Assembly: GCA_028867735.1 (NCBI GenBank)
Contig: JAGWFW010000004.1
Span: 10,885 to 72,879, forward strand
Direction of reading: 5' to 3'
From: Nitrososphaerota archaeon
Lineage (GTDB): Archaea; Thermoproteota; Nitrososphaeria; Nitrososphaerales; Nitrosopumilaceae
DNA: 61,995 nucleotides
Of this stretch, positions 25,610 through 28,699 are shown piece by piece. The position numbers and the translations under genes were made by a program. The notes below the pieces were generated by a model. That model saw only the letters and a list, made by a program, of their open reading frames with translations, made no database searches and had not been told where the DNA came from. The first letter of the stretch is position 1, and every line of letters starts with the position of its first letter.

Positions 25610-25709
25610 GGTATCATTCTAGATACCTACGATAAAAGAGTTCAAGTGGAAAAAAGACTATCTGGGAATCGATTTATACACACTATTTTTTATGGTAAAT
25701 GGTATACTC

Positions 25710-26465
25710 ATGAGTTGGCTAACTGACGCTCATATCCATCTATCAGATGACGAATTCAAACCAGAACTGCCGTTTATTCTTGCAGCTATGGACAGGATGA
25801 AAATGAGGGCATGTTGCGTTTCCATGGACTATGCAAGTTCGAATGCAACGCTTGCCATCGGTGAGAAAAGCAGATTGGTCCTGCCTTTCCTTGGGATACA
25901 TCCGGAGAAAGCAGGCGGCGATCTAGAGCCAGTAACAAACCTGATTCTGGATAATTCAGACAGAATATCTGGCATAGGGGAGATTGGCCTTGACAGGACA
26001 TATGTCCCAGACGATGATGGTTTCAAACGTCAGGTTCATGTCTTTGAAAAAATGCTGTCACTGGCAGAAAAACTTGGCAAGCCAGTGTCAATCCATTCAC
26101 GAAAGACATTGGATGAGATATTCTCTATTTTGTCGTCATATCGCCTTGCTGGCACGCTGCTGCACTGGTTTGCAGGAAACAAAAAGCAACTGCAAAAAGC
26201 AATGGATGTCGGATGTTACGTTTCATACGGACCTGCGATGGTTTATTCTCAAGACAAACAAGTTCTCCTTTCTCAAACTTGTCTTGACAAGGTATTGATG
26301 GAAACTGATGGACCGGTAAAGTTTTCCAAGTGTTTTGGATACAAGACTGCGCAAATAACTTTTCTTCCAAGTGTTCTCTTTTGCGCCTCCAACATTCTTG
26401 GCAAGCGATATGATGAGACACTTGAAATCGTGGAAAAAAATACCAATTCATATCTTGGCATATAG
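25710..26465 (+). CDS. TatD-family metal-dependent hydrolase
   Basis: WLTDAHIHLSDDEF, GIGEIGLDRTY, PVSIHSRKTLDEIFSIL, LMETDGPVKF. Confidence 0.9.
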   Translation: MSWLTDAHIHLSDDEFKPELPFILAAMDRMKMRACCVSMDYASSNATLAIGEKSRLVLPFLGIHPEKAGGDLEPVTNLILDNSDRISGIGEIGLDRTYVPDDDGFKRQVHVFEKMLSLAEKLGKPVSIHSRKTLDEIFSILSSYRLAGTLLHWFAGNKKQLQKAMDVGCYVSYGPAMVYSQDKQVLLSQTCLDKVLMETDGPVKFSKCFGYKTAQITFLPSVLFCASNILGKRYDETLEIVEKNTNSYLGI

Positions 26466-26481
26466 GTATAAAATACCCCTT

Positions 26482-26754
26482 ATGCCAATCGGTAACGTGA
26501 ATAGAGTCAGACGAATTTCTACGGAACTAATGACTACTTATAAAGGAAAATTTGGCGTCGACTTTAAACAAAATAAGAAAATACTTGACGAAGTTGCTGT
26601 AGTCAGATCAAAGGGACTAAAAAATGAGATTGCAGGATATATCACAGCCCATCTGCGAAGAGAACTTGAAGAACAAAAGGAAAAAGAATCACTGGCACCA
26701 CAGGATGAGACCATCGCTGAGACTGAAGAGCTGGAAGAACAGCTGGTCAGCTAA
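26482..26754 (+). CDS. rps17e: 30S ribosomal protein S17e
   Basis: NVNRVRRISTELMTTYKGKFGVDFKQNKKILDEVAVVRSKGLKNEIAGYITAHLRRE; internal ATG at 26482. Confidence 0.95.
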   Translation: MPIGNVNRVRRISTELMTTYKGKFGVDFKQNKKILDEVAVVRSKGLKNEIAGYITAHLRRELEEQKEKESLAPQDETIAETEELEEQLVS

Positions 26755-26813: not shown

Positions 26814-27593
26814 ATGATAACGGTCAAACTTCTTGGCGGTATCAGGAAATCCTTTCTGTCTGATACTGTATCAATTGAAAAAAACTCCATGTCCGTATCT
26901 GATCTTCTTGACTTTCTCCAAGGCTTGGTTCAAAAAAACATGCCTGTATTTGACACGAGAAATATTCTTGTAGCGATAAACGGTGCCGATTCGTCCGTTC
27001 TGCAAGGAAACGAAACTCTTCTTAGGGACGGTGATGTTATCAGCATAATTCCTGTGGTTCATGGAGGCAGCAAAACAAGAACCAACTTTAGGATCTCAAA
27101 TTACCATGTAGAATTAATCAGGATTGGAAAGACAAGTGCCGATCCCGTGAGATTTCTTGAATCTATACGAACCAGATTCCCAACTATTGTTATTCAGGGC
27201 ATTAGATCAAAGTACATTCTAAGTGTAAATCATGCAAAGAGAGTCATTGAAGTCTCCCTAGCGGCAAACAAGGCCGGAACCCTGCTTTCAAATAAAGTTG
27301 AAACTGACATGCTTATGAGATTTGCAGCAAGCAAGCAGATAAGTGACGCAATCTCCAAAGCGGGATTGCAAAAGGACGGTGATTCGATTCTGATTGCGAT
27401 TGGAAGAGAATCGCTAGTGAACAAACTTGTTGCAGATCTGAATCCTATGGTAAAACCAATGATGCCCTTTCCCAAAAATGCCAATTTCTTAAAAAAAGAG
27501 TTCAAAATAACAAAAAAAGAACTTGACTGTGTAATGTCATCAGAACCGCTTGAGGATCTCCTAGTTGAGAGATCTGCAGTCCTACTCCATTGA
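26814..27593 (+). CDS. fusion: N-terminal ThiS/MoaD ubiquitin-like domain ending VVHGG + C-terminal Cgi121 (KEOPS subunit)-like domain
   Basis: N-term MITVKLLGGIRKSF...VAINGADS...LLRDGDVISIIPVVHGG; C-term ETDMLMRFAASKQISDAISKAGLQKDGDSILIAIG resembling Cgi121. Confidence 0.75.
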   Translation: MITVKLLGGIRKSFLSDTVSIEKNSMSVSDLLDFLQGLVQKNMPVFDTRNILVAINGADSSVLQGNETLLRDGDVISIIPVVHGGSKTRTNFRISNYHVELIRIGKTSADPVRFLESIRTRFPTIVIQGIRSKYILSVNHAKRVIEVSLAANKAGTLLSNKVETDMLMRFAASKQISDAISKAGLQKDGDSILIAIGRESLVNKLVADLNPMVKPMMPFPKNANFLKKEFKITKKELDCVMSSEPLEDLLVERSAVLLH

Positions 27594-28103
27594 ATCTCGT
27601 TTTACTTTCAAAGTACTCACTATGTCAGAGTCTTTTAGTATGGAGATTCCTGCCATGTCTCCAAGAATTTCAACCATAATGTTCCAATCATATTCTTCCA
27701 AGGACACCTTGTTTTTCACAATTCCTGCAATTGAGTCGATCAACTCCTTAGTTGATAGCTCCGAGCCTCGTTTTTCAATTGTAATTCTGTAAGAATCACC
27801 TGACTGCATACAGTCTGCATGTTTTTGCACTGCCGTCACTATGTTATCAAGCGTGGTCCTAATGGACTCTTGAATCGGTATGAACCTGTGGCAGTATCTG
27901 ACGCTCCACGGCTCGTCAAGAATCTTTGTTCTGATCCTGTCTACTACTTGGAAAGGATCTAGAGATGTATCGACCACTACTATGCCAGAAAACCTACTGT
28001 GTTCTGTTTTGGCCTCTGCATCACCCAGTATGGCAAGAATCTTTGAAATCTCATCAGATGCCTCTTCTTCAAGGTGACGACTGCATGTTACAATTAGGTT
28101 CAA
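27582..28103 (-). CDS. THUMP-domain protein (Tan1-like)
   Basis: Small alpha/beta protein with YCHRFIPIQESIRTTLDNI and YRITIEKRGSELSTKELIDSIAGIVKNKVSLEEYDWNIMVEI, THUMP-like. Confidence 0.78.
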   Translation of the reverse strand: MNLIVTCSRHLEEEASDEISKILAILGDAEAKTEHSRFSGIVVVDTSLDPFQVVDRIRTKILDEPWSVRYCHRFIPIQESIRTTLDNIVTAVQKHADCMQSGDSYRITIEKRGSELSTKELIDSIAGIVKNKVSLEEYDWNIMVEILGDMAGISILKDSDIVSTLKVKRDSME

Positions 28104-28699
28104 ACTAGCGAAAGCAGCTCCTTTTCGCTAATTTTTCCTTCCCGTATTATGTCAAACCTGTCACCTGCTACTCTGACGATTGTTGATTCTACAGGATTTG
28201 GTATGCTCCCGCCGTCTAACAGTATGTCATATCCGCTCAATTTCTCTATCACCTCTGTAGAGTCTGCAGCAGAAGGCTGGCCGGATGGATTTGCGCTGGT
28301 TCCAACAAGCAGTTTGCATTCTTTGAGAAGTTCTAATACGCATGGATGGTTGGGAACACGTACTGCTATCTTTTTATCAAGACCAAGAGACTTTGCAATC
28401 TTTTCTTCTTTCACATCAAGAATTAATGTTAATGGACCAGGCCAGAATCTAGACGCGAATCTCTGTGATAACTTGTCAAAGACTGCGATCTTTGATATCT
28501 CAAAAATAGAAAGTCCTAGGACCGGAAGTTGTTTTGATCCCTCCCGTCCTTTAATCTTGTAAATTGTTTCTACCGCTTTGCTATTGAATGGATCACATCC
28601 TATTCCGTATACCGTATCCGTAGGAAAGACTGCAATGCCTCCACTCTTGATTATCCTGGAAGCCATGGAAATTCCATCGCGGTTGCAGGACACAATCAT
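28100..28699 (-). CDS. Sua5/YrdC/YciO-family threonylcarbamoyl-AMP synthase
   Basis: GGIAVFPTDTVYGIGCDPFNSKAVETIYKIKGR, FWPGPLTLIL, VPNHP, GTSANPSGQPSAAD. Confidence 0.96.
   Translation of the reverse strand: MIVSCNRDGISMASRIIKSGGIAVFPTDTVYGIGCDPFNSKAVETIYKIKGREGSKQLPVLGLSIFEISKIAVFDKLSQRFASRFWPGPLTLILDVKEEKIAKSLGLDKKIAVRVPNHPCVLELLKECKLLVGTSANPSGQPSAADSTEVIEKLSGYDILLDGGSIPNPVESTIVRVAGDRFDIIREGKISEKELLSLV

What the first reader, a model, noticed from the sequence alone, without database searches (positions are those of the whole stretch)
26814..27593. ThiS/MoaD ubiquitin-like domain with internal Gly-Gly fused to a Cgi121 (KEOPS)-like domain
Residues 1-85 read as a beta-grasp sulfur-carrier/SAMP-like domain ending in VVHGG, the position where free ThiS/MoaD/SAMP proteins have their activated C-terminal diglycine. 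Here the chain continues (SKTRTN...) into a Cgi121-like domain. The arrangement is formally similar to eukaryotic ubiquitin-ribosomal protein fusions, where a protease frees both parts. Either an archaeal JAMM-type protease releases a modifier and Cgi121, or the beta-grasp domain has become a structural part of KEOPS. Either would link protein conjugation or sulfur transfer to tRNA t6A synthesis. I do not recall this fusion being described functionally, but could not search.
Basis: partly seen in the sequence, partly recalled or inferred. Interest (0 to 1): 0.9.

Follow-up and report, generated by a model that had tools for sequence, protein, structure and literature searches.

The report
Ubiquitin-like carrier fused to tRNA-modification subunit
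[quoted passage not shown] the fusion was reported in 2010, but its two-glycine junction, where free relatives end, never changes, which suggests the chain is cut there to release both parts.

Summary
Window 26814-27593 (+) encodes one 259-residue protein: a Urm1/MoaD-like beta-grasp domain (1-85) ending in HGG, then a complete Cgi121 domain (86-259). Pfam, NCBIfam, AlphaFold2 and Foldseek agree. The fusion itself is not new: Makarova and Koonin reported it in all Thaumarchaea then sequenced (PMC2948915).

What I add. HGG is invariant in all 139 fused loci read (109 distinct genes), with both glycine codons scrambled synonymously and a variable linker after it. Unfused orthologues, still next to cgi121, end at HGG or carry only 1-9 more residues. 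Fused and split states interchange repeatedly on the tree. Nitrosopumilaceae have almost no free ThiS/MoaD-type protein: the only other copy is fused to its E1, also with an invariant internal GG. They lack MoaE, keep the NcsA tRNA thiolase, and nearly all keep a JAMM1 protease; in one related genus that protease gene adjoins this operon.

Best reading: a precursor cut after Gly85, probably by JAMM1, releasing a Urm1-type sulfur carrier/modifier and Cgi121 (confidence about 0.6; cleavage not shown). Main rival: an uncleaved structural fusion. Precedents: MoaX of M. tuberculosis and SAMP precursors of Caldiarchaeum.

The parts
26814..27593 (+). Ubl-Cgi121 fusion gene, 259 aa (P0001)
   Evidence: ORF; only Cgi121 and one of two Ubls found in the genome
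26814..27068 (+). Urm1/ThiS/MoaD-like beta-grasp domain, residues 1-85
   Evidence: Pfam ThiS 6.7e-10, Urm1 1.7e-6; AF2 and Foldseek to SAMP1/Urm1/MoaD
27060..27068 (+). His83-Gly84-Gly85 junction (CAT GGA GGC), the proposed cleavage point after Gly85
   Evidence: invariant in 139/139 fused loci; zero entropy with synonymously scrambled Gly codons; pLDDT under 50 at 83-86
27069..27077 (+). Short variable linker, residues 86-88 (SKT), before the first Cgi121 strand
   Evidence: high column entropy 2.1-2.8 bits; AF2 strand starts at 89
27069..27590 (+). Cgi121 domain, residues 86-259
   Evidence: Pfam CGI-121 and NF011465; Foldseek to yeast, human and archaeal Cgi121; Gln175, Ile176 and Gly184, aligned with the tRNA-CCA contacts Gln71, Ile72 and Gly80 of M. 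jannaschii Cgi121, are invariant
26482..26754 (+). Ribosomal protein S17e, directly upstream, probably co-transcribed
   Evidence: Pfam Ribosomal_S17e 3e-16; same order in 54/54 complete named loci
27582..28103 (-). THUMP-domain protein, convergent, overlaps the end of the fusion gene by 12 bases
   Evidence: Pfam THUMP 1.1e-6; conserved in 54/54 loci
28100..28699 (-). Sua5/TsaC, L-threonylcarbamoyladenylate synthase (first step of t6A synthesis)
   Evidence: Pfam 2.5e-53, TIGR00057 3e-47 above cut-off; conserved in 52/54 loci
25692..26465 (+). TatD-family nuclease upstream of S17e (conserved neighbour)
   Evidence: Pfam TatD_DNase 9.1e-45; 54/54 loci

Best explanation
The gene makes a precursor protein. 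After translation it is cut directly after Gly84-Gly85, most likely by the JAMM1-type metalloprotease these archaea carry. This frees (i) an 85-residue Urm1-type protein with the exposed C-terminal diglycine that E1 enzymes activate, and (ii) Cgi121, which joins KEOPS for t6A37 synthesis. The freed Urm1-like protein most likely serves as sulfur carrier for NcsA (wobble-U34 thiolation), as a SAMP-like protein modifier, or both; it cannot serve the standard molybdopterin synthase because MoaE is absent. The cell would thus make the carrier for one anticodon-loop modification and a subunit for another from one polypeptide. Shown here: the two domains, the invariant HGG under protein-level selection, orthologues ending at or just after HGG, repeated fusion/splitting, near-absence of a free Ubl, and presence of JAMM1, E1 and NcsA. 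Inferred: cleavage, the identity of the protease, and the use of the released Ubl.
For: HGG is kept in 139/139 fused loci. In 109 distinct genes both Gly codons use all four synonyms with no replacement, while the next ten residues average 2.30 bits of entropy against 0 for HGG and 1.49 overall. Unfused orthologues beside cgi121 end exactly at HGG (G283, G457, G468, G469, all Caldiarchaeum-like genomes read; also G326 and G354, where cgi121 lies elsewhere) or add only 1-9 variable residues, the pattern of precursor tails. Fused and split states change at least 3 times (6 by parsimony), and one origin of the fused state is rejected, p_AU 0.0145. In 61 Nitrosopumilaceae genomes all but two listed ThiS matches lie in open frames of 245 aa or more: Ubl-Cgi121 or Ubl-E1. 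The E1 fusion also has an invariant internal GG in 26 sequences, and in G413 that Ubl is a free gene ending AVAGG*. JAMM proteins occur in 60/61 genomes, usually two; in the window's genome one is PfJAMM1-like and one AfJAMM-like. The reduced 0.8-Mb genomes G399, G409 and G420 keep only the JAMM1 type. In one Nitrososphaeraceae-like genus (5 genomes) a JAMM1 gene is divergent to the S17e-Ubl-Cgi121 operon, whose Ubl ends HGG plus two residues where read out (G450, G451). MoaE 0/61; TIGR00269/NcsA 55/61. AF2 finds the junction disordered. Precedents: MoaX is cut between Gly82 and Ser83 and needs both glycines (PMC4326299); D. radiodurans JAMM cuts MoaD-MoaE (PMC8832034); CsJAMM cuts C. subterraneum SAMP precursors (PMC6043591).
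Against: No direct evidence of cleavage. JAMM proteins are equally present in relatives with split genes, so their presence does not track the fusion, and JAMM1 is not adjacent to the fusion in Nitrosopumilaceae. The linker is only about 3 residues, which could hinder a protease. In genus g10 the E1 was found in 1 of 4 genomes (absent in G291, 98% complete) while HGG stays, which would be odd if E1 activation were the only reason for the diglycine. The fused state is nearly fixed in the whole family, which could mean the joined form is the working form. Fetch bias: one of three seed patterns contained HGG, although loci from the other searches also all have it.
Confidence: 0.6

Rival explanations
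1. Uncleaved structural or regulatory fusion: the Urm1-like domain stays attached to Cgi121 and acts inside KEOPS, for example as a docking or tRNA-guiding module; the HGG is a retained flexible hinge.
For: The joined gene is nearly fixed across Nitrosopumilaceae; HGG persists where no E1 was found (G291); the linker is very short; both domains are well conserved.
Against: A hinge would not require the exact HGG of free Urm1 proteins, invariant in 139/139 next to a variable linker. Split orthologues end at this point, and the second Ubl of the same cells shows the same internal GG. The modest overall pTM of 0.66 gives no sign of a fixed interface.
Confidence: 0.25
2. Mixed state: a regulated fraction is cleaved; intact fusion and free parts both have roles, so that the Ubl, or JAMM activity, tunes KEOPS (a form of the regulation by SAMPylation that Makarova and Koonin suggested).
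For: Would explain both the near-fixation of the fusion and the invariant GG; SAMP/JAMM regulation of an enzyme is known in Haloferax (HvJAMM1 and molybdopterin synthase, abstract of PMC4443979).
Against: No specific evidence; split relatives manage without a fusion.
Confidence: 0.12
3. Neutral read-through fusion of two adjacent operon genes, with no consequence.
For: Ancestral genes are adjacent with a stop right after HGG, so losing one stop codon fuses them; the state toggles.
Against: A Ubl that needs a free C-terminus would be inactivated by an uncut fusion; HGG would then decay, yet it is invariant.
Confidence: 0.03

Closest known systems
Ubl-Cgi121 fusion of Thaumarchaeota (Makarova and Koonin 2010, PMC2948915)
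   Same: The same protein family and the same S17e neighbour; that paper also notes the Ubl-E1 fusion in Thaumarchaeota.
   Different: That paper gives the architecture and a general tRNA-modification/SAMPylation idea. In the passages read there is no analysis of the diglycine, of split orthologues with tails, of processing, or of the lack of free Ubl.
MoaX of Mycobacterium tuberculosis (MoaD-MoaE fusion, PMC4326299)
   Same: A beta-grasp sulfur carrier with internal Gly-Gly-Ser fused to a partner; there, cleavage after GG is needed for activity.
   Different: The partner is MoaE, not Cgi121; the protease was unidentified; MoaE is absent here.
Caldiarchaeum SAMP precursors with CsJAMM, and CsUb precursor with CsRpn11 (PMC6043591)
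   Same: Archaeal ubiquitin-like precursors cut by JAMM-family proteases (CsUb precisely after Gly-Gly), in a related lineage.
   Different: C-terminal tails (nine residues for CsUb), not a whole functional domain.
Eukaryotic ubiquitin-ribosomal protein fusions
   Same: Modifier plus conserved translation-related protein in one chain, GG at the junction (own knowledge).
   Different: Different modifier, partner and proteases; not homologous as a fusion.
Urm1 (yeast, trypanosome, Sulfolobus)
   Same: Fold and C-terminal HGG; eukaryotic Urm1 carries sulfur for U34 thiolation with an E1 and Ncs6 (NcsA family).
   Different: Urm1 is a free protein; the pathway has not been tested in these archaea.

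Membership tests
Cgi121 (KEOPS subunit) | Sequence profile and fold of Cgi121 | tested here: met
   NF011465 E=2.4e-33, above cut-off; Foldseek to 4ww7, 8k20, 3enp, 7kjt
Cgi121 (KEOPS subunit) | tRNA CCA-tail contact residues | tested here: inconclusive
   Positions aligned with Gln71, Ile72 and Gly80 of M. jannaschii Cgi121 (PMC7718258) are invariant; Lys56 and Met60 are not kept (Asn160, Thr164)
Cgi121 (KEOPS subunit) | Binding to Bud32 and membership of KEOPS | not testable with these tools
   Needs co-purification
Urm1/SAMP/MoaD-type ubiquitin-like proteins | Beta-grasp fold and family profile | tested here: met
   PF02597 and PF09138 above cut-off; AF2 and Foldseek
Urm1/SAMP/MoaD-type ubiquitin-like proteins | C-terminal diglycine (HGG in Urm1), exposed | tested here: inconclusive
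   HGG present and invariant but internal in the gene product; exposed only if cleaved
Urm1/SAMP/MoaD-type ubiquitin-like proteins | Activation by an E1, sulfur transfer or protein conjugation | not testable with these tools
   E1 in 47/61 and NcsA in 55/61 family genomes; activity not tested
MoaD (molybdopterin synthase) | Partner MoaE in the genome | tested here: not met
   MoaE 0 of 61 genomes while 11 of 14 control genomes ring
Processed Ubl precursors (MoaX, pro-ubiquitin, pro-SAMP kind) | Invariant GG at the domain boundary followed by sequence free to vary | tested here: met
Processed Ubl precursors (MoaX, pro-ubiquitin, pro-SAMP kind) | A suitable protease in the same cell | tested here: met
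   JAMM hits in the window's genome: PfJAMM1-like at G000:C111 and AfJAMM-like at G000:C202, both with the HxH...SxxD motif
Processed Ubl precursors (MoaX, pro-ubiquitin, pro-SAMP kind) | Demonstrated cleavage after GG | not testable with these tools
   Needs an in vitro protease assay or native mass spectrometry

The most novel reading that the evidence does not exclude
Nitrosopumilaceae have given up free ubiquitin-like genes almost entirely: both Ubls are born as fusions, one with the E1 and one with Cgi121, and JAMM1 frees both. One polypeptide then supplies, one to one, the sulfur carrier for U34 thiolation and the tRNA-binding subunit for t6A37, coupling two modifications of the same anticodon loop.
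Probability: 0.3. Interest if true: 0.8.

Novelty: new variant of a known kind. Interest (0 to 1): 0.56.

Why it matters
Ammonia-oxidising archaea are among the most abundant microbes, and how they make and use ubiquitin-like proteins is unknown. If the fusion is cut at the diglycine, it is an archaeal counterpart of ubiquitin-ribosomal protein fusions, links the Urm1/SAMP system physically to KEOPS and t6A, and gives the JAMM1 protease a clear job. If it is not cut, KEOPS has gained a built-in ubiquitin-like domain whose diglycine is conserved for an unknown reason. One gel or one mass-spectrometry search separates the two.

Tried and rejected
MoaD for molybdopterin synthase: rejected, no MoaE in 61 genomes. 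JAMM presence tracking the fused state: rejected, JAMM proteins are equally common in relatives with split genes. Sequencing artefact for the fusion: rejected, it recurs in many isolates and MAGs, including complete chromosomes. The two frameshifted loci (G378/L194 at the junction, Nitrosotalea sp. TS/L145 inside the Ubl) look like homopolymer or assembly errors and are not used as evidence for splitting; the in-frame TGA right after HGGA in G061 may be real but could also be an error. Single origin of the fused state: rejected on this tree (p_AU 0.0145), though many inner branches are weak and two end branches are long. A literature search for PfJAMM1/SAMP2 by those terms found nothing; the paper library holds open-licence papers only.

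Full report
OBSERVATION. Residues 12-85 match Pfam ThiS (6.7e-10) and 2-85 Pfam Urm1 (1.7e-6); 130-255 match CGI-121 (1.7e-9); NCBIfam's Cgi121 equivalog matches at 2.4e-33. A 42-sequence AlphaFold2 model has mean pLDDT 87.9 and pTM 0.66: two well-formed domains, with residues 83-86 (HGG|S) the only stretch below 50. Foldseek returns yeast, plant, human and archaeal Cgi121 for the C-terminal part and SAMP1, Urm1 and MoaD for the N-terminal part. By sequence the nearest solved Ubls are Urm1 proteins of Trypanosoma and Sulfolobus and a SAMP1 homologue. The terminal HGG is the Urm1 signature (own knowledge, consistent with the alignments).

ORGANISM AND SETTING. The window lies in a genome of the same genus as G089, whose 1,805,304-bp contig has the length of Nitrosotalea devanaterra LN890280. 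Gene order histone(-) TatD(+) S17e(+) fusion(+) THUMP(-) Sua5(-) is kept in 51 of 54 complete named loci, and S17e and THUMP flank the fusion in all 54. Sua5 makes the threonylcarbamoyl donor that KEOPS uses, so the locus groups t6A genes.

PRIOR KNOWLEDGE. Makarova and Koonin (PMC2948915) already reported this fusion in all Thaumarchaea then available, its co-transcription with S17e, and the Ubl-E1 fusion, and proposed links to tRNA modification or SAMPylation. A full-text search for Cgi121 with MoaD found only this paper. The architecture is therefore known; what follows about the diglycine I did not find in the literature held.

THE DIGLYCINE. HGG is present in 139 of 139 fused loci. In 109 distinct genes the first Gly uses GGA/GGT/GGC/GGG 36/33/27/13 times and the second 28/45/31/5 times, with no replacement, so selection is on the protein. 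Column entropy is 0 at 83-85, 2.30 bits at 86-95 and 1.49 overall. Caveat: one of the three seed patterns of the genome-contig search contained HGG, but fused loci found by other routes also all have it.

WHERE UNFUSED RELATIVES END. Outside the family the two genes are usually neighbours. In a Caldiarchaeum-like family (f12) and in f33 the Ubl ends ...HGG* and cgi121 follows at once. In f3 (Nitrososphaeraceae-like) some end HGG*, others HGGS*, HGGSR*, HGGDT*, HGGGTAF*, HGGNNNEL*; in f2 HGGCI*, HGGCL*, HGGGCL*, HGGCLRYDGEVE*. So the chain after an invariant HGG ranges over 0, 1-9, or about 160-176 residues (Cgi121). Within one f3 genus (g19) both fused and split forms occur. On a tree of both domains the state changes at least three times on supported branches, six by parsimony, and one origin is rejected (p_AU 0.0145). 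This is what is expected if residues after GG do not stay on the mature protein.

THE REST OF THE SYSTEM. In 61 Nitrosopumilaceae genomes ThiS-type domains occur in two settings, Ubl-Cgi121 and Ubl-E1; only two listed matches lie in short open frames, the split G061 gene and a free E1-type Ubl in G413 that ends AVAGG*. The E1-fused Ubl has an invariant internal GG in all 26 sequences read. An E1 can adenylate only a free C-terminal glycine (established chemistry), so if either Ubl works in the normal way it must be cut out. MoaE is absent (0/61). NcsA-type thiolase is present in 55/61, ThiF in 47/61, JAMM in 60/61, usually two. One JAMM of the window's genome resembles PfJAMM1, whose crystal entry with SAMP2 exists (5lda); the other resembles AfJAMM. 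The 0.8-Mb genomes keep only the JAMM1 type, along with E1 and NcsA. In one f3 genus the JAMM1 gene is divergent to S17e-Ubl-Cgi121, in five genomes by coordinates and read out in full in G450.

PRECEDENTS. MoaX is cut between Gly82 and Ser83, and both glycines are needed. DRJAMM cuts D. radiodurans MoaD-MoaE. CsRpn11 cuts its ubiquitin precursor after Gly-Gly, and CsJAMM cuts Caldiarchaeum SAMP precursors.

WHAT ARGUES AGAINST. No cleavage data exist. JAMM presence does not follow fusion. The linker is short. In genus g10, E1 was found in only one of four genomes while HGG persists. The fusion is nearly fixed in the family. A structural role for an intact fusion therefore keeps a probability of about a quarter.

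CGI121 FUNCTION. Residues aligned with Gln71, Ile72 and Gly80 of M. jannaschii Cgi121, which affect tRNA CCA binding, are invariant; Lys56 and Met60 are not kept. The domain is the only Cgi121 found in the genome, so it most likely does the normal KEOPS job.

VERDICT. Real and well supported; fusion already known; the evidence that its diglycine is a processing site is new as far as I could search, strong by comparison, and untested at the bench.

Noticed in passing
L095 (G000:C244:40000-45065), E1 ORF starting near 2053: The other Ubl of this genome is fused to the E1 (Ubl-ThiF) with an internal PAVAGG|S; GG is invariant in 26 such fusions, so this fusion needs the same processing question asked.
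   Followed up: partly
L307 (G211:C17), also L309: In Caldiarchaeum-like genomes the Ubl(HGG*)-Cgi121 pair lies about 3-5 kb from the eukaryote-like ubiquitin operon (Rpn11, ubiquitin ending VGG, E2, E1).
   Followed up: partly
L291 2257-2700 (+): JAMM1 protease gene divergent and adjacent to S17e-Ubl-Cgi121 in one f3 genus (G448-G451, G453).
   Followed up: yes
L298 501-917 (-), L299 5325-5738 (+): An AfJAMM-type gene lies roughly 3-5 kb from the fused gene in several genomes of f3 genus g19 (G458, G390; a weaker JAMM hit at similar distance in G462).
   Followed up: partly
L038-L041, L286: In f2 genomes the cgi121 frame opens one or two bases out of frame right at the HGG codons (an ATG lies inside cATGGtGG in several), suggesting overlapping, translationally coupled genes.
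   Followed up: no
G291, G412, G423 (genus g10): No E1 (ThiF) found in three of four genomes although the Ubl-Cgi121 of G291 keeps HGG; real loss or incomplete assemblies.
   Followed up: partly
window 27582-27593: The fusion gene and the convergent THUMP gene overlap by 12 bases at their 3' ends; the convergent arrangement is conserved across the family.
   Followed up: partly
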